Below the pieces are notes generated by a model. It searched no databases and had not been told where the DNA came from. It was given only the letters and a program-made list of their open reading frames with translations. Below are positions 1,049 to 11,864 of a stretch of DNA of 11,864 bases, piece by piece. Position 1 is the stretch's first letter, and each line of letters begins with the position of its first letter. The position numbers and the translations under genes are program-made. This DNA is from Chloroflexota bacterium (GTDB taxonomy: Bacteria; Chloroflexota; Anaerolineae; Anaerolineales; UBA4823): positions 1-11,864 of the forward strand of contig JAUWLJ010000028.1 in NCBI GenBank assembly GCA_030613705.1, given 5' to 3'.

Positions 1049-2842
1049 ATGGCAGATCGTTCATCCACCGCATTTCAACCAGCAAGTCTTGATTCAAATC
1101 GTTCCACAGGGACAATGGATCCAATCTCACCTAGCTCAACCCGAGAGATGGACATTGCCCTCGACACTCTTCAAGGGTCTAAAGACCGTTGGATAAATCT
1201 CGACCTTGGTCGCAAAATCAATATTCTTGATCAACTTATGGTCGATTTCAATGCTGTTGCGGATGAGTGGGTTGCTGTCAGCATGCAGGCTAAGGGTATC
1301 CCAAAGAATTCGTTCGGTGAGGGTGAGGAATGGTTCAATATCGCCATCAGCAACCGCTTAATCCGCCTGTATAAAGGAGCACTATTAGATATCCAGAAGC
1401 ATGGTAAACCCACCATCCCAGGACCAATGACCACCAATCCGAATGGTCAGCTCTCGGTTCAGGTTTTCCCGCAAACAAACATCGACCGCTTGCTCCTGCG
1501 TGGAACCACGTGCCAGATCATCATGGAACCAGGGATAACTCCCAAAAAGCTTGTCCAGGATCAGGCTTCAATCTACCAGCAGGTGGATCCTGCCGGGAAA
1601 ATCACACTAGTTCTCGGCGCTGGCAACACCTCCTTTCTAATTCCAGGTGATATTCTAGCCAAGTCAATTAACGAAGGGCATGTCATCCTCTTTAAACCCA
1701 ACCCAATCAATGAGTATTTAGGACCTCTCGTTGAGTATGCTTTCCGCTCATTGATCGAGCCTGGTTATATGCGGGTCGCCTATGGCGGTGCCGAGCAAGG
1801 GTCCTACCTCAGCCCTCACCCGCTCGTCGATGATCTCCATATGACTGTCTCCCACCGCCCTTTCGAGGCCAGCGTGGGTGGTGCGCGGGCAGAGGGCGCC
1901 CAGCGGATAGCGGCCGCAGATCCACTTCTCAAATAGCGTTTCACCGCAGAGTTAGGCAATATCACTCCCGTGATCGTCGTCCCCGGAGATTGGAGCAAAA
2001 GTGATATACAGGCTCAAGGGATCTATAGCGCCACCTGGCTGGTATATAACGGTGGCTTCGCTTGCCCGGCTCCGCGATTGATAATCCAGTCCAAGAACTG
2101 GCCCCATCGACAGGCCCTCAATCAAGCTATCGCAGATGCATTTACCCAGGTTGAGACCAGGAACGCCTTTTATCCTGGCGCCGATCAGGTCCACCAGCGC
2201 TTCGTCTCAGCCCATCCATCCGCCTTGCAGATCGGAGATACCCCCGAGGGACACCTTCCCTGGACCTTCATTACGGACGTTGACTCGTCGGATGTAAACG
2301 ATATCTGCTTCCAGGAGGAACCGTTTTGCAGTATCTTATCCGAAACCGCCATAGAAGCTGATTCTGTGCCGGAATACCTCGACCGAGCGGTATCATTTGT
2401 CAATAACCATGTCTGGGGAACTCTGCACGCGATTCTTATCATCGACCCACAGACGCAGAAAATTTCCCAAATATCCTCTTCCCTCGAGAAGGCAATTGCA
2501 AACTTGTGCTATGGGACAATATCCGTTAACCAGTACCCAGCCATCTCATACTATATTGGCCTGACCACTTGGGGAGGCTATCCGGGTCACGATATTTACG
2601 ATATTCAATCTGGCACGGGATTCGTCAATAATACTCTCATGTTCTCCAACCCCCACAAATCAGTCTTGCGTGCGCCGTTTAAACTCTCACCGGATCCCTT
2701 TGTGGTCTCCACCAGACGCGCCCACGAATTTGGCGCGAAAATGGCAGCTTATGAGGCTTTCCCCTCCTTCAAGCAGCTGCCCAGCATCATCTGGACTGTT
2801 CTCCGCAGTCCACATGAGCACATATTTAAAAAATCTGACTGA
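1049..2842 (+). pseudogene. Aldehyde dehydrogenase family protein interrupted by in-frame TAG
   Basis: One frame of 598 codons encodes a long ALDH-family protein but holds a TAG at 1934-1936 (codon 296). Before it lie the N-terminal region and the Rossmann part, with VLGAGNTS and KPNPINEYLGP, typical of a roughly 550-600 residue ALDH subfamily seen in environmental bacteria. Directly after the stop, in the same frame, come RFTAELGNITPVIVVPG (the general-base Glu of the ELG motif, codon 301) and GGFACPAPRL (catalytic Cys, codon 339), then the C-terminal domain. The ATG at 1049 has a strong ribosome binding site (AAGGGGG, about 7 nt upstream). The downstream half has no independent start: the GTG at 1970 lies inside the conserved TPVIVV strand. 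The upstream half alone (295 residues) lacks both catalytic residues. Either the gene is freshly inactivated, the stop is read through, or it is a sequence error. The substrate cannot be inferred. Confidence 0.85.
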
Positions 2843-3932: not shown

Positions 3933-4646
3933 ATGAATAAGAAGTGGGTATTGACCCTTTCAATCTGCCTTTTCCTCGTATTAGTTGGAGGAGCAATGTT
4001 CAATTATTTTCGTAAGTCTGAACCTGAAATCAGATCCGAATCGGGTGACTGGATATCTCTTCCTGAACCAGCTCATGACGGTCAGACATCGATTGAAAAC
4101 GCCCTCCTCAAGCGGCAATCTATCCGTCAATACGCACCTGATCCCTTGACCTTAGCTGAGGTATCACAGCTGCTTTGGGCTGCTCAAGGTATTAATCGAC
4201 CGGGTGGCTATCGCACTGCTCCCTCAGCGGGGGCACTTTATCCAGTTGAGCTGTATTTGGTCAGTGGTCAGGTAGACCAGCTACCCTCTGGGGTTTACCG
4301 CTACCATCCGGAAAACCACAGTTTAGAGCAGTTAATGTTGGGTGATTTCCGCCGGGAACTCAGCCAGGCGGCTTTGAATCAAGAGTCAGTTCAGGATGCA
4401 GCTGCTGTTATTCTCATCTCAGCCATCTACCAGCGTACTACCGGGAAATACGGAGACCGCGGCATCCAGTACGTGCACATGGAGGTCGGCAGTGCTGCAG
4501 AAAATGTCTACCTGCAGGCAGTTTCTCTCAATTTAGGCACTGTATTTATCGGAGCTTTTAACGACGACCAGGTTAAGAGCCTTCTCAATCTGGATGTTCA
4601 AGAACAACCATTATGTCTCTTACCAGTCGGCAAGATCGCTCCGTAA
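3933..4646 (+). CDS. Membrane-anchored SagB-type nitroreductase-family protein
   Basis: 237 residues. An N-terminal hydrophobic stretch (about residues 5-25, after MNKK) acts as a signal anchor; it has no lipobox Cys. After a short linker comes a SagB/ThcOx-type nitroreductase fold: the FMN phosphate-contacting R-x-S-x-R (R61, S63, R65 in KRQSIRQY), LLWAAQGIN, the family hallmark APSAGALYPVELY (96-108), GVYRYHPENHSLEQL (120-134), and the C-terminal HMEVGSAAENVYLQAVSLNLGTVFIGAF. Stand-alone proteins of this type, without a cyclodehydratase or precursor peptide, are common in bacteria and archaea and have no assigned substrate; none of those biosynthesis partners occurs here. Placement outside the membrane is an inference from the signal anchor. 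No good ribosome binding site precedes the ATG, but its position before the anchor makes this start the natural choice. Confidence 0.85.
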   Translation: MNKKWVLTLSICLFLVLVGGAMFNYFRKSEPEIRSESGDWISLPEPAHDGQTSIENALLKRQSIRQYAPDPLTLAEVSQLLWAAQGINRPGGYRTAPSAGALYPVELYLVSGQVDQLPSGVYRYHPENHSLEQLMLGDFRRELSQAALNQESVQDAAAVILISAIYQRTTGKYGDRGIQYVHMEVGSAAENVYLQAVSLNLGTVFIGAFNDDQVKSLLNLDVQEQPLCLLPVGKIAP

Positions 4647-5776: not shown

Positions 5777-6484
5777 ATGGCAATCTTAGCAGGCAACCCT
5801 ACTCACCTTTTGGCTCCGATCGGCTTCTTCCACCAACTATCCTTCCAGGATTTGGATGAAATTGCCTCCACAGCCACCCATCGAGAATACGATAAAAACA
5901 CGTATCTATTCCACCAGGGCGATCAAGCCCGACGTTTTTGCGTATTGGTGAAGGGGAAGGTAAAACTGACACAGCTTACCGAAGATGGGCAACAAATAAT
6001 TCTGCGCTATGTCAGTCCTGGTGAAGCATTTGCAGTCGTTGCTGTATTGAGTAAAATTCCTTATCCGGTTACGGCAACTACAGTCAACCAGGTTTCGCTA
6101 CTGACCTGGGAAGATCAGGTTATGCTGGATTTGATGAAAAAATACCCCCAGCTGGCCATTAACTCCCTCCGCATCCTTGCCGGCCGAATACAGGAATTTC
6201 AGGACCGTTTCCGCGAGCAGGCAACAGAGCGCGTTGAAAGAAGAATTGCCCGCGCTTTGTTGCGTTTAGCCAGCCAGACCGGCCGTAAATTAGATCGAGG
6301 CATCCTGATCGACATCGCCCTCACCCGACAGGACCTGGCGGAGATGACCGGCACCACCCTCTACACCGTCAGCCGCACGCTGAGCCAATGGGAAAAAGAT
6401 GGTCTGGTGAGCAGCCAAAGGGAACAGGTAACCATCCTGGCTCCCCACCAGCTGGTAGTCATTGCCGAAGATATGTCCAAATAG
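5777..6484 (+). CDS. Crp/Fnr-family transcriptional regulator
   Basis: 235 residues, normal family length. Residues about 17-135 form the cyclic-nucleotide-binding-like beta barrel (FHQGDQARRFCVLVKGKVKL, then the PGEAFAVVAVLSK loop), followed by the dimer helix and a winged helix-turn-helix at about 184-205 (RQDLAEMTGTTLYTVSRTLSQWEKDGLV). The single Cys (C55) and the absence of an N-terminal Cys cluster rule out an FNR-type 4Fe-4S sensor. The phosphate-binding loop lacks the Arg-Ser/Thr pair of true CRP and instead reads YPVTATT, so cAMP binding is unlikely; NO- or haem-responsive members of the DNR/NnrR kind are closer in style, but the signal is unknown. The recognition helix has Tyr (Y196) where FNR has the specificity Glu of E-x-x-S-R. 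It stands alone, directly upstream of the nos genes, and is the obvious candidate to regulate them. Confidence 0.92.
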   Translation: MAILAGNPTHLLAPIGFFHQLSFQDLDEIASTATHREYDKNTYLFHQGDQARRFCVLVKGKVKLTQLTEDGQQIILRYVSPGEAFAVVAVLSKIPYPVTATTVNQVSLLTWEDQVMLDLMKKYPQLAINSLRILAGRIQEFQDRFREQATERVERRIARALLRLASQTGRKLDRGILIDIALTRQDLAEMTGTTLYTVSRTLSQWEKDGLVSSQREQVTILAPHQLVVIAEDMSK

Positions 6485-7084: not shown

Positions 7085-9100
7085 ATGAATCTAAGAACCA
7101 TGAAGAAATACTTACTCCCCTTCGTTTTGATGGCTGTGGTCGGCTTCTTGCTGGTGACTGCCTGCAGCGGTATTGGAGGTGATACCGAAACACCTGAAAG
7201 TGCTGCTGCCCCGGGTGATATAAATGCCATCGCCGCAGAACGCGGGCTCACCCCAGCTGATATTGAAGCAGCCGTCAAAACTTATACCCCCACAGGGCAG
7301 CATGACGAATACATCATGTTCGCTTCTGGTGGACATTCCGGTCAAATGCTCGTCATCGGTATGCCGTCCATGCGCCTCCTGAAACTCATCGGAGTCTTCA
7401 CTCCCGAACCCTGGCAAGGATGGGGTTATGGTGCTGAATCCTCCATGGAAGTACTCGAACAGGGTAAAATCAATGGTGAGGAAGTCCTTTGGGGTGATAC
7501 CCATCACCCGGCATTGAGCGAAACTGGTGGTGAATACGATGGTGAGTGGGTGTTCATCAATGATAAAGCCAATGCCCGCATCGCCGTTATCGATCTGCGG
7601 GATTTCGAAACCAAGCAGATCGTGAAAAACCCCATCGCAATCAACGATCATGGCGGCACCATGGTCACCCCAGATACCGAATGGATCATTGAAGGTGGTC
7701 AGTATGCTGCTCCACTCGGCTGGGAGTACGCTTCCCTGGCGGACTACGAAGAGGAATACCGCGGCATGGTCACCTTCTGGAAATTCGATCGCGAAAGCGG
7801 GCGTATCCAGACCGACCAATCCTTTGCCATAGAGCTGCCTCCTTATTGGCAGGATCTGTGCGATGCTGGTAAGTTGGTCAGCGAAGGATGGGTTTTCTGC
7901 AACTCCTTCAACACCGAGATGGCCACCGGTGGCGTTGAGGATGGTGAACCGCCTTTTGAAGCCGGCGCTTCCCAACGTGATATGGACTATATGCATATCT
8001 TCAACCTGGATAAAGCCATTGAGGTCTTCAAGGCTGGTCAGACCGAGATGGTCGCCGATTTCCCGGTTATCTCCCTGCAAACCGCCATCGATGAGGAACT
8101 GCTTTACTTTGCTCCGGAGCCGAAGAGCCCTCATGGAGTCGATGTCTCTCCCGGTGGTGATTACATGGTCGTCTCCGGCAAGCTCGATCCCCATGTAACC
8201 ATCTACAGTTTCGAAAAAATCCAATCTGCTATCGCGGCTGGAGGATTCGAAACCGATGACTACGGCATCCCGATCCTGGATTTCGACGATGTCGTTGAAT
8301 CCCAGGTTGAGGTTGGGCTGGGTCCGCTGCACACTCAATTCGGTCCTGATGGTTATGCTTACACCAGCCTATTCTTAGAACCGGCAGTTGCCCGTTGGAC
8401 GATGGGCGGCCCATATGCTGACCTAAACGATGATGAGCCCTGGTCGTTGGTCACCAAGACTTTTATCCATTACAATGTCGGTCACCTTGCCGCTGCTGAA
8501 GGGGATACTGTCAGCCCAGATGGAAAATATCTGGTCTCGCTGAATAAATGGGCTATTGATCGCTTCCAGAACGTCGGCCCATTGGTTCCTCAGAATTTGC
8601 AGCTGCTCGATATCTCCCAACCCGGTACCACCATGCCCCTGATCGACGACATGCCGCTCGGGATCGGAGAACCTCACTACGCCCAGATTATCAAAGCTGA
8701 TAAACTCGATCCCTGGGAGGTTTATCCGGAGATCGGCTGGAATCCCGCTACCCAGAGCCTCGATCCAAACGCCACCCTGGCTGGCGAAGAGCGCATTGAA
8801 CGGGATGGCAATAATGTGGAAATCTGGATGACCGCTGTCCGCAGCCATTTCAATCCCGAACACGTCGAGATCAATCAGGGCGATCACGTGATATGGCATC
8901 TCACAAATGTTGAACGTGCTTACGATGCCACCCACGGCTTCTCCCTGCCCGGTTACAATATCAACATCAGCATAGAGCCCGGTGAGACCGCCACTTTTGA
9001 GTTCGATGCCACTCAAGACGGCGTCTTCACCTACTACTGCTCGGAGTTCTGCTCCGCGCTGCACCTCGAAATGGTCGGTTACATGCTGGTTCAACCCTAA
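7085..9100 (+). CDS. nosZ: Nitrous oxide reductase, clade II, lipoprotein form
   Basis: 671 residues; reduces N2O to N2 with two electrons outside the cytoplasmic membrane. The start ATG has a strong AGGAGG at 7071-7076. The N-terminus is a Sec lipoprotein signal: KK, a hydrophobic core, then the lipobox V-T-A-C27, rather than the twin-arginine signal of clade I enzymes. The seven-blade propeller carries all seven CuZ histidines: H140 and H141 (DTHH), H189 (NDHGG), H350 (SPHGV), H416 (PLHTQ), H467 (VGHL) and H531 (EPHYA). The C-terminal cupredoxin has the full CuA set: H617, C652, C656, H660 and M663 (CSEFCSALHLEM). Its CSEFC core looks like cytochrome oxidase subunit II, in place of the Trp-containing core usual in clade I. 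Length and order are normal for clade II. It is followed by a strong hairpin, then NosB- and NosD-like genes. No nosR is seen, as usual for clade II. Confidence 0.97.
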   Translation: MNLRTMKKYLLPFVLMAVVGFLLVTACSGIGGDTETPESAAAPGDINAIAAERGLTPADIEAAVKTYTPTGQHDEYIMFASGGHSGQMLVIGMPSMRLLKLIGVFTPEPWQGWGYGAESSMEVLEQGKINGEEVLWGDTHHPALSETGGEYDGEWVFINDKANARIAVIDLRDFETKQIVKNPIAINDHGGTMVTPDTEWIIEGGQYAAPLGWEYASLADYEEEYRGMVTFWKFDRESGRIQTDQSFAIELPPYWQDLCDAGKLVSEGWVFCNSFNTEMATGGVEDGEPPFEAGASQRDMDYMHIFNLDKAIEVFKAGQTEMVADFPVISLQTAIDEELLYFAPEPKSPHGVDVSPGGDYMVVSGKLDPHVTIYSFEKIQSAIAAGGFETDDYGIPILDFDDVVESQVEVGLGPLHTQFGPDGYAYTSLFLEPAVARWTMGGPYADLNDDEPWSLVTKTFIHYNVGHLAAAEGDTVSPDGKYLVSLNKWAIDRFQNVGPLVPQNLQLLDISQPGTTMPLIDDMPLGIGEPHYAQIIKADKLDPWEVYPEIGWNPATQSLDPNATLAGEERIERDGNNVEIWMTAVRSHFNPEHVEINQGDHVIWHLTNVERAYDATHGFSLPGYNINISIEPGETATFEFDATQDGVFTYYCSEFCSALHLEMVGYMLVQP

Positions 9101-9166: not shown

Positions 9167-9856
9167 ATGGCTACTTCACTAGAAAAAATCATCGGTCCTC
9201 GCACCCCAGAGGAGAATCTGGCAGAAGATCGTTTTCGCTTTAGGCTGCCCATTATCTTTTTCCTAATCGCTGCGCTGCTGCTCATCGCTTCTATCTTTCT
9301 TCCTTACTGGAAGATGACCCTCCAGGCACCGCAATATCCCAAGGGTCTCAGCATCACGGCTTATATCAATAAGCTCACCGGTGATGTGGGGGAAATCGAT
9401 GGACTAAACCACTATATCGGCATGCGCCCCCTGGCTGAGGCTGCCCAGCTCGAGCGTTCATTGAGTATTGCTGCCGTCAGTGTGCTATCCCTCTTGCTCG
9501 TTGCCGCGATTTTCATCCATTCCAAATATGCCGTCCTTCTCGCCTTGCCAGCCATCCTTTACCCTTTTATCTTCCTGGGTGACATGTATTTCTGGCTGCG
9601 TAACTTTGGCCTTAATTTAGATCCAACTGCCCCACTCAGCAATGCCATCAAGCCTTTCGTTCCCCCTATCCTCGGCGTGGGCAAGCTCGCCCAGTTCGTG
9701 ACCATCGCCCAGGTGCAGAGTGGATATTATCTGGCCTTGATGGCTTCGATTTCTATCTTGATTGGTCTTTACTTTCAACGCCGGGCCTACAAACCCTTGA
9801 TCGATTCCCCGGCTGGTTCCGAAGATCAACCTATCGCTATAACAGATCTGGACTAG
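9167..9856 (+). CDS. nosB: NosB-like four-helix membrane protein of clade II nos clusters
   Basis: 229 residues with predicted membrane helices near 27-48, 97-118, 120-143 and 183-203. Between helices 1 and 2 is an outside loop of about 50 residues with a striking conserved-looking core: FLPYWKMTLQAPQYPKGL (44-61), GDVGEIDGLNHYIGM (72-86). Clade II nos clusters typically carry, right after nosZ, a membrane protein of unknown function called NosB (genetically studied in Wolinella succinogenes); position, topology and the LNHYIGM motif agree with that. Tyr, His, Trp and Met in the outside loop make contact with copper, NosZ or an electron carrier conceivable, but no role is proven here. The C-terminal tail (RRAYKPLID...) is cytoplasmic by the positive-inside rule. 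No strong ribosome binding site is visible before the ATG. The frame at 9153 (MKRSLWLLH) is a short out-of-frame ORF and is rejected. The next gene starts 11 nt after the stop. Confidence 0.78.
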   Translation: MATSLEKIIGPRTPEENLAEDRFRFRLPIIFFLIAALLLIASIFLPYWKMTLQAPQYPKGLSITAYINKLTGDVGEIDGLNHYIGMRPLAEAAQLERSLSIAAVSVLSLLLVAAIFIHSKYAVLLALPAILYPFIFLGDMYFWLRNFGLNLDPTAPLSNAIKPFVPPILGVGKLAQFVTIAQVQSGYYLALMASISILIGLYFQRRAYKPLIDSPAGSEDQPIAITDLD

Positions 9857-9867
9857 TCAGGCCACCC

Positions 9868-11864
9868 GTGAAAATCACCCTTTTCAAGTCATTGGTGCTC
9901 CTAATGCTTGTCCTTGCATTTACTCTCCCAGCTGGGAGTTCTTCTGCCAAGGATGACACTATTCTGATCGTCTCCCCACAAGGTCCCTACACCTCGATCT
10001 CTGCTGCATTGGACGCAGCCGTTGATGGTGATCGGATCGAAGTTCGTGGTGGATATTATTCCGGTCCGCTGGTCGTAGATAAATCAGTCACCTTGTCTGG
10101 GATCGATTGGCCGGTAATCGACGGGAATGACCAGGGTACGGTGGTAAAACTGGTATCCCCAGGCACCCATTTCCAGGGTTTTGTCATCCGGAACAGTGGC
10201 GCCTCCTTGGACCAAGAAAATTCTGGGATAGCAGGTGAAGCACCGAATTTAGCTATCGAACACAACCGCCTTGAGCAGACCCTCTTTGGCATATACCTTC
10301 GTGAAGCGTCAGGCACCGTTATCCGTGATAATTACATCCAGAGTAAGGATTTAGGTCTTGCACGTCGTGGTGATCCGATCCGGGTCTGGTTCAGCAACGA
10401 TGTGCTCATAGCAGAGAACAAGGTGGAAAAGGGTCGCGATGTGGTCCTTTGGTATTCCGAAAACCTGACTGTTCGCGACAACACCATCACCGAGGGTCGC
10501 TACGGACTCCATTTCATGTATTGTGACGATGCTACCATCACCAACAACCTCTTGGCTTACAACTCGGTGGGCACATTCATGATGTACAGCCGGCGCCTGG
10601 AGCTCACCCACAACACTATCGCCTACAATCATGGACCCAGCGGTTTCGGTATCGGTCTTAAGGATATGGATGATGCCGTCTTCCAGGACAATTTATTCCT
10701 TGCAAACCGGATCGGCGCCCATCTCGATAATTCACCCCGCGAGGTTGACAGCCTTGGCACCTTTGACGGCAATGTCTTCGCTTATAACGACATCGGCATA
10801 AACTTAATGCCATCCGTCCGCCACAACCAGTTCTCAAACAACAGTTTCATCGAAAATCAGGAACAGGTCAATATCGGTGGTGGCGGTATGAACCAGGATA
10901 ATCTCTGGACTGTGGATGGAGTGGGAAACTTCTGGAGCGATTACGCTGGTTATGACCAGACCGGGGATGGTTTCGGAGACGAAATTTACCGGGCTGACCG
11001 TTTATTTGAGAATCTCACCTCCCGATTTCCCAATTTACGCTTATTTATTTTCAGTCCCTCCTCGCAGGCCGTTGATTTCGCGGCCAAAGCGGTGCCTTTC
11101 GTCCGCCCCCAGCCGAAATTGACCGATTCTCAACCATTAATGTCCCCCGTTTTCCCTAAAAACCTTCCGGCTCTACCTGAAGAAAACGATAGTTGGTTTC
11201 TTTGGGTATCAGCTGGATTGATCCTCTTGGCCAGTATCGTCTTCCTGGGTGGTGCAGGATTGCCCCTCTCACGATCGAACAAACCAGGTCCATCACCATA
11301 TCGACCCCCGATAGGAATTGGGAAAGATCAGAAAGGAAATAATCTTTTGATTCAAGTAAAACAGCTAACCAAAAGTTTCAAGGGTATCACCGTCGTTGAC
11401 CAGCTCTCATTTGAAATTCCTGCTGGTCAGGCAGTCGCTTTGTGGGGACCCAATGGTGCTGGAAAAACCACCTCTTTACGCTGTCTGATTGGCCTCTTGC
11501 CTTTTGAAGGAGAGATCACCGTCAACGGGATCGATGTTCGCCGCCAGGGAAAAGTTGTCCGCAAGCTGGTCGGCTTTGTCCCCCAGGAACTCGCATTTCA
11601 CGATGATCTCACGGTGCAAGAGACCATGAAGTTCTACGCTCGCTTGAAAGGTGTTCCCAATCCTTTAGAAGCACAAATCCAGCCCATATTAGAACGGGTT
11701 GATTTATCAGGACACGAGGGCAAACTGATCCGTGAACTTTCTGGTGGTTTGAAACAGCGCCTTGCCTTGGGCATTGCCCTGCTCGCAAACCCGCACATTC
11801 TTGTTCTCGATGAACCGACCTCCAATTTGGATTTCCATGCTCGCGATGATTTCCTCGACCTGCT
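9868..11864 (+). CDS. NosD-NosF fusion protein (3' end outside window)
   Basis: One frame without a stop from GTG 9868 to the window end (665 codons). Residues 1-27 are a Sec signal (cleavage likely after SSA27). Residues about 30-425 are NosD: a right-handed beta helix of N-x-I/F repeats with family motifs YGLHFMYCDD (212-221), GNFWSDYAGYD (353-363) and SPSSQAVDFAAKAVPFVRP, ending PLMSP. A single helix follows (about 443-467, WFLWVSAGLILLASIVFLGG), then a basic linker (SRSNK ... GKDQKG), then NosF: Walker A GPNGAGKT (527-534), Q-loop Q573, signature LSGGLKQR (624-631), Walker B ILVLDEPT (644-651) and D-loop SNLD. In known systems NosD is a separate periplasmic protein and NosF the ATPase of the NosDFY complex that builds the CuZ/CuA sites of NosZ. 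The helix gives correct topology: NosD outside, NosF inside. An internal SD-TTG may also yield free NosF; a one-base error near 11305-11309 could mimic the fusion. Confidence 0.88.
   Translation, partial: MKITLFKSLVLLMLVLAFTLPAGSSSAKDDTILIVSPQGPYTSISAALDAAVDGDRIEVRGGYYSGPLVVDKSVTLSGIDWPVIDGNDQGTVVKLVSPGTHFQGFVIRNSGASLDQENSGIAGEAPNLAIEHNRLEQTLFGIYLREASGTVIRDNYIQSKDLGLARRGDPIRVWFSNDVLIAENKVEKGRDVVLWYSENLTVRDNTITEGRYGLHFMYCDDATITNNLLAYNSVGTFMMYSRRLELTHNTIAYNHGPSGFGIGLKDMDDAVFQDNLFLANRIGAHLDNSPREVDSLGTFDGNVFAYNDIGINLMPSVRHNQFSNNSFIENQEQVNIGGGGMNQDNLWTVDGVGNFWSDYAGYDQTGDGFGDEIYRADRLFENLTSRFPNLRLFIFSPSSQAVDFAAKAVPFVRPQPKLTDSQPLMSPVFPKNLPALPEENDSWFLWVSAGLILLASIVFLGGAGLPLSRSNKPGPSPYRPPIGIGKDQKGNNLLIQVKQLTKSFKGITVVDQLSFEIPAGQAVALWGPNGAGKTTSLRCLIGLLPFEGEITVNGIDVRRQGKVVRKLVGFVPQELAFHDDLTVQETMKFYARLKGVPNPLEAQIQPILERVDLSGHEGKLIRELSGGLKQRLALGIALLANPHILVLDEPTSNLDFHARDDFLDL
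11332..11349 (+). promoter_or_regulatory. nosF: Internal ribosome binding site and TTG start for free NosF
   Basis: AAAGGA (11332-11337) lies 9 nt before TTG 11347-11349, which would begin MIQVKQLTKSFKG, the usual first residues of a NosF-type ATPase. It sits inside the NosD-NosF reading frame exactly at the domain border. It could be a working second start giving extra free NosF, or a relic of two separate genes. Confidence 0.55.

What the first reader, a model, noticed from the sequence alone, without database searches (positions are those of the whole stretch)
9868..11864. NosD and NosF encoded as one membrane-spanning polypeptide
Reading every codon from GTG 9868 to the window end shows no stop: exported NosD beta helix, one transmembrane helix, basic linker, NosF ATPase. 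Topology is right for a fusion (signal peptide puts NosD outside, helix returns the chain, positive residues follow on the inside). In the studied NosDFY complex NosD and NosF are separate chains with two NosF per NosD, so a fusion would change the stoichiometry and physically tie ATP hydrolysis to the copper-maturation domain. I do not recall this as a standard layout.
Basis: partly seen in the sequence, partly recalled or inferred. Interest (0 to 1): 0.82.

Follow-up and report, generated by a model that had tools for sequence, protein, structure and literature searches.

The report
Copper-loading protein fused to its ATPase
In these bacteria two parts of the machine that loads copper into the nitrous-oxide-destroying enzyme are made as one membrane-crossing protein, a common but apparently undescribed layout that raises the question of how the known one-to-two ratio of these parts is kept.

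Summary
From GTG 9868 to the contig end one open frame encodes exported NosD, one transmembrane helix, a basic linker and a NosF-type ATPase. It is not a frame error: all 120 listed relatives (of 1725) carry both domains in one chain, the nearest 96% identical. In a draw of 396 genomes of the class, 84 have NosD: 51 fused, 28 separate, 5 unresolved. The state changes at least 19 times on a 156-row NosD tree, 7 of them forced by well-supported branches. Fused operons carry one NosF domain with NosY behind (extra NosF near 0 of 80; NosY in 63 of 63 with room); 12 fused genomes show no spare NosF-grade gene. Separate NosD already ends in a transmembrane helix (58 of 60), so fusion is topologically simple. 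How two ATPases per NosD are kept is open: many fused genes keep an in-frame start with a ribosome-site-like sequence in the linker, which suggests NosDF plus free NosF; others have none. The window's own start signal is weak. New variant of a known kind.

The parts
9868..11862 (+). nosDF: fused NosD - transmembrane helix - linker - NosF ATPase; 3' end cut by contig end
9868..9951 (+). signal peptide (helix 2-18 in the model; boundary approximate)
9997..11142 (+). NosD copper-maturation beta-helix (TIGR04247, residues 44-425)
11191..11256 (+). transmembrane helix (residues 442-463, by the model of the 96% identical homologue)
11260..11337 (+). basic linker, predicted disordered (residues 465-490, pLDDT under 50)
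11330..11337 (+). ribosome-site-like AGAAAGGA, 9 nt before TTG 11347 (candidate internal nosF start; duplex -5.6 kcal/mol; weak on its own)
11347..11349 (+). in-frame TTG at the column where separate nosF genes most often start
11347..11862 (+). NosF ABC ATPase domain, first 172 residues
11446..11472 (+). Walker A GPNGAGKTT
   Evidence: sequence; invariant columns; motif name recalled
11737..11748 (+). ABC signature LSGG
   Evidence: sequence; motif name recalled
11800..11817 (+). Walker B LVLDEP
   Evidence: sequence; motif name recalled
9167..9856 (+). nosB-like membrane protein directly behind nosZ (no Pfam or NCBIfam match)
   Evidence: place as described in PMC11096178 (passages)
7085..9100 (+). 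clade II Sec-dependent nosZ (TIGR04246, 832.6 bits, cut-off 625)
5777..6484 (+). Crp/Fnr-type regulator gene upstream of nosZ

Best explanation
nosDF encodes a real fused subunit of the NosDFY copper-maturation ABC complex of a clade II nitrous oxide reductase operon. NosD is exported by its signal peptide and folds outside; the helix at 442-463 brings the chain back; a flexible basic linker tethers the NosF ATPase inside, where it docks on NosY, whose gene follows in relatives. Shown: one frame, both domains, wide and recurrent occurrence, one NosF domain per operon, NosY next door, and a C-terminal helix already present in NosD that is not fused. Inferred: ATP hydrolysis by the tethered NosF drives copper delivery as in NosDFY. 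The second ATPase of the complex comes either from a second NosDF chain (2 NosDF : 2 NosY) or from free NosF made at an in-frame start in the linker (1 NosDF : 1 NosF : 2 NosY). For this gene I put about 0.5 on the first, 0.35 on the second and 0.15 on cleavage in the linker.
For: Open frame and domain scores. All 120 listed relatives carry PF05048 and PF00005 in one chain (the list favours fused ones, which score over both domains). 80 fused, 77 separate and 4 unresolved of 161 loci at 97% NosD identity; NosY behind 63 of 63 fused loci with room; extra NosF near 0 of 80. Of 69 fused loci with 1.3 kb or more upstream, nosB-like gene in 69 and nosZ within 4 kb in 61. 12 fused genomes each have one NosF-grade match (284-502 bits), next best 211 or less. 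C-terminal helix in 58 of 60 separate and 42 of 49 fused NosD, with net positive charge after it on average. Same-genus operon nosZ-nosB-nosDF-nosY(PF12679)-nosL(PF05573)-cytochrome c. The ATPase part matches NosF of NosDFY (7osf_B, 7o14_B, 7o0y_B) among many ABC ATPases by fold. Fusion in a two-contig genome whose first contig has the length that I recall for Sphaerobacter thermophilus chromosome 1.
Against: No protein evidence. The window itself lacks NosY and the NosF end (contig end). A close relative on the tree, L052, is separate, though its nosF is itself broken in the record. L019 (G019) has no nosZ found within the fetched 8 kb and only a weak NosB match. Family and fold matches do not test copper delivery. 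I did not search systematically for a cultured fused organism with shown N2O reduction; T. hugenholtzii, which I only suspect is fused, showed no N2O consumption in culture (PMC8129789, passages).
Confidence: 0.88

Rival explanations
1. Dual product: the same gene makes NosDF from the first start and free NosF from an in-frame start in the linker, so that 1 NosD : 2 NosF : 2 NosY is kept without a second gene.
For: Among 80 fused genes, 35 have an in-frame NTG in the linker with ribosome-site energy -6 or lower, against 16.6 +- 2.9 in codon-permuted and 22.3 +- 3.2 in synonymously recoded linkers (largest 26 and 31, 200 runs each) and 17.3 expected from own-gene windows; 24 of the 35 lie within 16 codons of the NosF anchor. 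In-frame linker ATGs average -4.8 against -2.8 for body ATGs and -2.0 for out-of-frame linker ATGs. Column -3, the best start of separate nosF in 58 of 76, is Met in 27 of 80 fused. Met at -3 is kept in 6 of 6, 5 of 6 and 4 of 4 in three fused clades whose linkers are 15, 24 and 19% identical. No second nosF gene was found to supply the extra ATPase.
Against: Could be a remnant of recent fusion. Sequences are related: at cluster level the paired test gives p=0.017, and one-per-cluster tests give median p 0.0026 but up to 0.19. For the 27 Met-at--3 genes the site is no stronger than synonymous recoding gives (42 of 300 runs as low). Four linkers have no start codon at all, and the five-member f23 clade has no usable site. 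11 of the 35 lie further upstream, the window's among them: it counts by TTG 11260 right behind the helix, not by TTG 11347, whose site is weak (-5.6).
Confidence: 0.35
2. Proteolytic cleavage in the disordered linker releases NosF, so that the mature parts are the ordinary separate ones.
For: The linker is predicted disordered and varies in length and sequence.
Against: I saw no shared motif in the linkers that I read, without a formal motif search. Cleavage of every chain would give equal NosD and NosF, not 1:2.
Confidence: 0.15
3. Artefact: a missing base in the C run at 11305-11309 joins two genes.
For: Single draft genome, contig end, no reads.
Against: The same frame is open in P0002 (96%), in a same-genus genome and in dozens of other genomes including single-contig ones.
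Confidence: 0.01
4. The fused protein serves a copper or other transport task unrelated to NosZ.
For: Function was not tested.
Against: Directly behind clade II nosZ and nosB in the window; nosB-like gene in 69 of 69 and nosZ within 4 kb in 61 of 69 fused loci with room upstream.
Confidence: 0.03

Closest known systems
NosDFY copper-maturation ABC complex (PDB 7o0y and related entries; its organism, Pseudomonas stutzeri, is recalled)
   Same: NosD beta-helix, NosF ATPase and NosY membrane partner, all beside nosZ; matched by sequence and, for NosF, by fold
   Different: There NosD and NosF are separate chains with twice as many NosF chains in the entries; the match to the 436-residue NosD chain ends at its residue 422, so it holds no counterpart of the helix and ATPase that follow here
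Clade II nos gene clusters with nosB and separate nosD, nosF, nosY (PMC11096178 and PMC13274427, passages read)
   Same: Sec-type nosZ, nosB directly behind, then nosD, nosF, nosY, nosL parts
   Different: nosD and nosF joined in one frame
Cas11b made by internal in-frame translation of cas8b (PMC11899642, outline and abstract)
   Same: works-like precedent for the dual-product reading: one frame gives a large protein and a second protein from an internal methionine
   Different: unrelated family; the internal start is shown there by experiment, only inferred here
ABC transporters with membrane and ATPase domains in one polypeptide (ABCA and ABCB entries among the matches)
   Same: ATPase tied to a membrane segment
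   Different: here the ATPase is tied to the exported copper-handling domain, not to the transmembrane domain NosY

Membership tests
NosD (TIGR04247) | score over the curated cut-off of 300 bits | tested here: met
   406.7 bits, residues 44-425
NosD (TIGR04247) | next to a nitrous oxide reductase gene | tested here: met
   TIGR04246 nosZ at 7085-9097, 832.6 bits
NosF ABC ATPase | ABC ATPase with Walker A, signature and Walker B | tested here: met
   PF00005 105 bits; motifs; the H-loop lies beyond the contig end and is present in P0002
NosF ABC ATPase | closer to NosF than to other ABC ATPases | tested here: met
   NosF profile: 290.8 bits for the truncated window copy, next in its genome 158.9 (the profile includes the same-genus fused NosF). 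In the PDB, other ABC ATPases score like NosF or higher
NosDFY complex | NosY membrane partner gene behind | tested here: inconclusive
   window contig ends before it; present in 63 of 63 fused relatives with room
NosDFY complex | NosD and NosF as separate chains, 1:2 | tested here: not met
   single frame; whether free NosF is made too is not testable here
Clade II nos operon | Sec-type NosZ with a nosB-like gene directly behind | tested here: met
   NosB matched no Pfam or NCBIfam family and is named by its place and by homologues in relatives
Internal in-frame translation product (as Cas11b) | second protein made from the internal start | not testable with these tools
   only sequence signals

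The most novel reading that the evidence does not exclude
Fused nosDF is a one-gene, two-protein unit: NosDF plus free NosF from a selected internal start, which keeps the asymmetric 1 NosD : 2 NosF stoichiometry. In lineages that have lost the internal start (such as the f23 clade), the complex has become a symmetric NosDF dimer with two NosD domains, a natural experiment on whether the asymmetry of NosDFY matters.
Probability: 0.3. Interest if true: 0.72.

Novelty: new variant of a known kind. Interest (0 to 1): 0.52.

Why it matters
NosDFY loads copper into nitrous oxide reductase, the known biological sink of the greenhouse gas N2O. A chain that physically ties the ATPase to the copper-handling domain limits models of how the cycle couples the two, and gives a single-gene handle for expression. 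It may also explain why nosF can seem to be missing in annotated genomes of this group: the Thermoflexus paper lists nosDYLZ without nosF (PMC8129789, passages; that its nosD is fused is my inference), and database sources name full-length fused proteins NosD or nitrous oxidase accessory protein, with some fragments named for an ABC ATPase. The paired fused and separate lineages make the role of the 1:2 ratio testable.

Tried and rejected
Sequencing error at the C run: rejected by relatives. A second nosF gene restoring 1:2: looked for near 80 fused loci, of which 61 have 2.5 kb or more downstream, and in 12 fused genomes (in three of these, G673, G697 and G720, only 150 of 156-253 candidates were scored), none found; L024 has two general ABC ATPases 4.7 and 7.9 kb downstream at 70-78 bits, not counted. 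A more distant ABC ATPase pairing with NosDF is not excluded. A first junction test with a 16-codon window missed starts further upstream; the anchor was off by ten codons in six f128 rows. The test was redone over the whole linker (anchors still uncorrected) and then with refined anchors. The synonymous-recoding control for the 27 Met-at--3 genes was not significant, told as evidence against. Fnr-box search: 13 matches with up to 2 mismatches against 8.1 expected, no use. PDB hits of the whole chain are dominated by general ABC ATPases. Literature: the listings and abstract starts (no paper) showed no paper on a NosD-NosF fusion; only open-licence PMC text was searched, most listed papers were not opened, and passages of six were read. 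The NosDFY structure paper did not appear in these listings; its 1:2 stoichiometry is recalled and agrees with the chain counts.

Rows dropped: L001-L017 (duplicates of later loci or other ABC genes of G000), L036 (same as the window) and L049-L051 (NosD-like without NosF) before the counts; 161 of 205 loci kept at 97% identity; 5 more left out of the tree (4 unresolved, 1 short NosD). In one search two of 84 genomes (G469, G627) were not fetched because their matches end at contig ends. The helix counts use the 110 loci, near-duplicates included.

Full report
What is there. The frame from GTG 9868 to 11862 is open for 665 codons. The window is the whole of contig C79 of a 2.24 Mb draft genome, 58% complete, so the gene is cut by the contig end. 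Residues 44-425 score 406.7 bits against NosD TIGR04247, above its cut-off of 300, and 511-652 match ABC_tran. Walker A, the LSGG signature and Walker B are intact. Upstream lie clade II nosZ (TIGR04246, 832.6 bits) and a 229-residue membrane protein in the place of nosB, which PMC11096178 describes as directly behind clade II nosZ (passages read).

Not an artefact. The 120 listed best database relatives of 1725 all carry both domains in one chain; the nearest is 96% identical and 784 residues long (candidates were limited to 0.55-1.75 times the query's length, and chains with both domains score highest). Of 61 genomes searched (the window's and 60 relatives), 10 have a match at the cut-off used, the window's own among them; in the same genus G002 is fused at 76% identity and three others have no match, while G020 of the same family has separate nosD and nosF. 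In a draw of 396 genomes of the class, 84 have NosD: 51 fused, 28 separate, 3 cut off or unclear, 2 not fetched. In a draw of 400 genomes of the phylum, 25 have a match, of which I read 12 as fused, 10 as separate and 3 as NosD-like without NosF. A scan of one genome per species kept the best 80 loci; fused ones include records titled Planctomycetota, Acidobacteriota, Armatimonadota, Calditrichota, KSB1 and Tectomicrobia.

Counts and history. All loci together gave 205, or 161 at 97% NosD identity: 80 fused, 77 separate, 4 unresolved. On a 156-row NosD tree (quick search) the state changes at least 19 times (shuffled labels 52.3 on average); well-supported branches alone force 7. The window and L018 pair with SH-aLRT 99; L052 (separate), L019 and L054 (fused) are the next kin at 89. 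So fusion, fission or both recurred.

Operon and partners. No fused locus of 80 has another NosF domain nearby (61 of them have 2.5 kb or more downstream), and all 63 with room have NosY directly behind. Of 69 with 1.3 kb or more upstream, all have the nosB-like gene and 61 have nosZ within 4 kb; G019 (L019) has only a weak NosB match and no nosZ within 8 kb. In G002 the order is nosZ, nosB, nosDF, nosY (PF12679), nosL (PF05573), cytochrome c. A NosF profile in 14 genomes (12 fused, 2 separate) finds one NosF-grade match each (284-502 bits), the next best being 211 bits or less. I found no spare NosF, though some other ABC ATPase could in principle pair.

Topology. NosD that is not fused already ends in a hydrophobic helix in 58 of 60 loci, followed by net positive charge on average; fused ones have it in 42 of 49 at the same threshold of 1.6, six more lie between 1.13 and 1.55 and one has an odd, short tail. 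So the C-terminus of NosD was probably already inside before fusion, and separate nosF usually starts overlapping or just behind the nosD stop. A model of P0002 from 45 sequences (mean pLDDT 82.9, pTM 0.54) has the helix at 442-463, linker 465-490 under pLDDT 50, and folded domains on both sides; at this pTM their relative placement should not be trusted. Foldseek matches the ATPase part to NosF of NosDFY among many ABC ATPases.

The stoichiometry puzzle. In the PDB the commonest NosD sequence of NosDFY has 16 chains in 16 entries and the commonest NosF sequence 30 chains in 15 entries. A fused gene without a spare nosF must either put two NosD on one complex or make extra NosF. Fused linkers often keep the nosF start: column -3, where 58 of 76 separate nosF genes have their best start (one of 77 had none), is Met in 27 of 80 fused genes and an NTG codon in 37. 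Linker starts with a strong ribosome-like site are commoner than three controls give: energy -6 or lower in 35 of 80, against 16.6, 22.3 and 17.3; 24 of these lie within 16 codons of the NosF anchor. In-frame linker ATGs (81) have stronger sites than body ATGs (841) or out-of-frame linker ATGs (34) (p 6e-9 and 4e-5, not corrected for kinship). In the f112/f135 clade all six keep ATG at -3 while linkers are 15% identical and NosD 79%; f128 keeps it in 5 of 6, the L055 clade in 4 of 4, the L053 clade in 2 of 3, f23 in 1 of 5. Against this: relatedness weakens the statistics (paired cluster p=0.017; single draws up to 0.19), the 27 Met genes do not beat synonymous recoding (42 of 300), and several lineages have no usable start. 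The window's own candidate, TTG 11347 behind AGAAAGGA, is only moderately placed (-5.6; 7th percentile of its gene); the window counts by another TTG, at 11260 right behind the helix. Its relative G019 has a strong site at the same column (-13.0). I therefore hold the dual product as a serious rival, not as shown.

A cultured case. Genome G402 has two contigs; C1 is 2,741,033 bp, the length that I recall for Sphaerobacter thermophilus chromosome 1; the published genome has two replicons and 3,993,764 bp in all (PMC3035262, passages and one section), which fits the rounded 4.0 Mb. It carries a fused frame of up to 852 codons with NosY behind and no good internal start (best -2.3, row L027). Its nearest database protein is 99% identical and 797 residues long, and all 120 listed relatives of 1213 again carry both domains. 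A composting study reports nosZ and nosD expression in a bin assigned to that species (PMC8434746, two passages).

Known or not. The parts are known; their fusion is common in databases, where full-length ones are named NosD or nitrous oxidase accessory protein, but eight literature searches, seen as listings and a few passages, showed no paper that describes it. The Thermoflexus paper lists nosDYLZ without nosF (PMC8129789, passages), as expected if nosF hides inside nosD; I did not verify which genome here is Thermoflexus. I file this as a new variant of NosDFY.

Noticed in passing
window 1049-1936 and 1970-2842: Two adjacent same-strand frames without any Pfam match; they could be halves of one broken gene.
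   Followed up: partly
window 3933-4646: SagB-type nitroreductase family protein (TIGR03605, 145.9 bits) with an N-terminal hydrophobic stretch.
   Followed up: no
window 5777-6484; L018:1971-2678: Crp/Fnr-type regulator upstream of nosZ, kept in the same-genus relative at the same place (425 bits).
   Followed up: partly
L052:5173-7434: Nearby separate relative: nosD stop and nosF ATG lie in the same frame 12 bases apart, and its nosF is split over two frames with an undetermined base, so its state may be unsure.
   Followed up: partly
L049-L051: NosD-like frames of 803-832 codons in family f44 with two NosD-like stretches and no NosF in the fetched piece.
   Followed up: no
L019:8720-11374: In this single-contig genome the gene before nosDF gives only a weak, partial NosB match and no nosZ is found within 8 kb, unlike most fused loci.
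   Followed up: no
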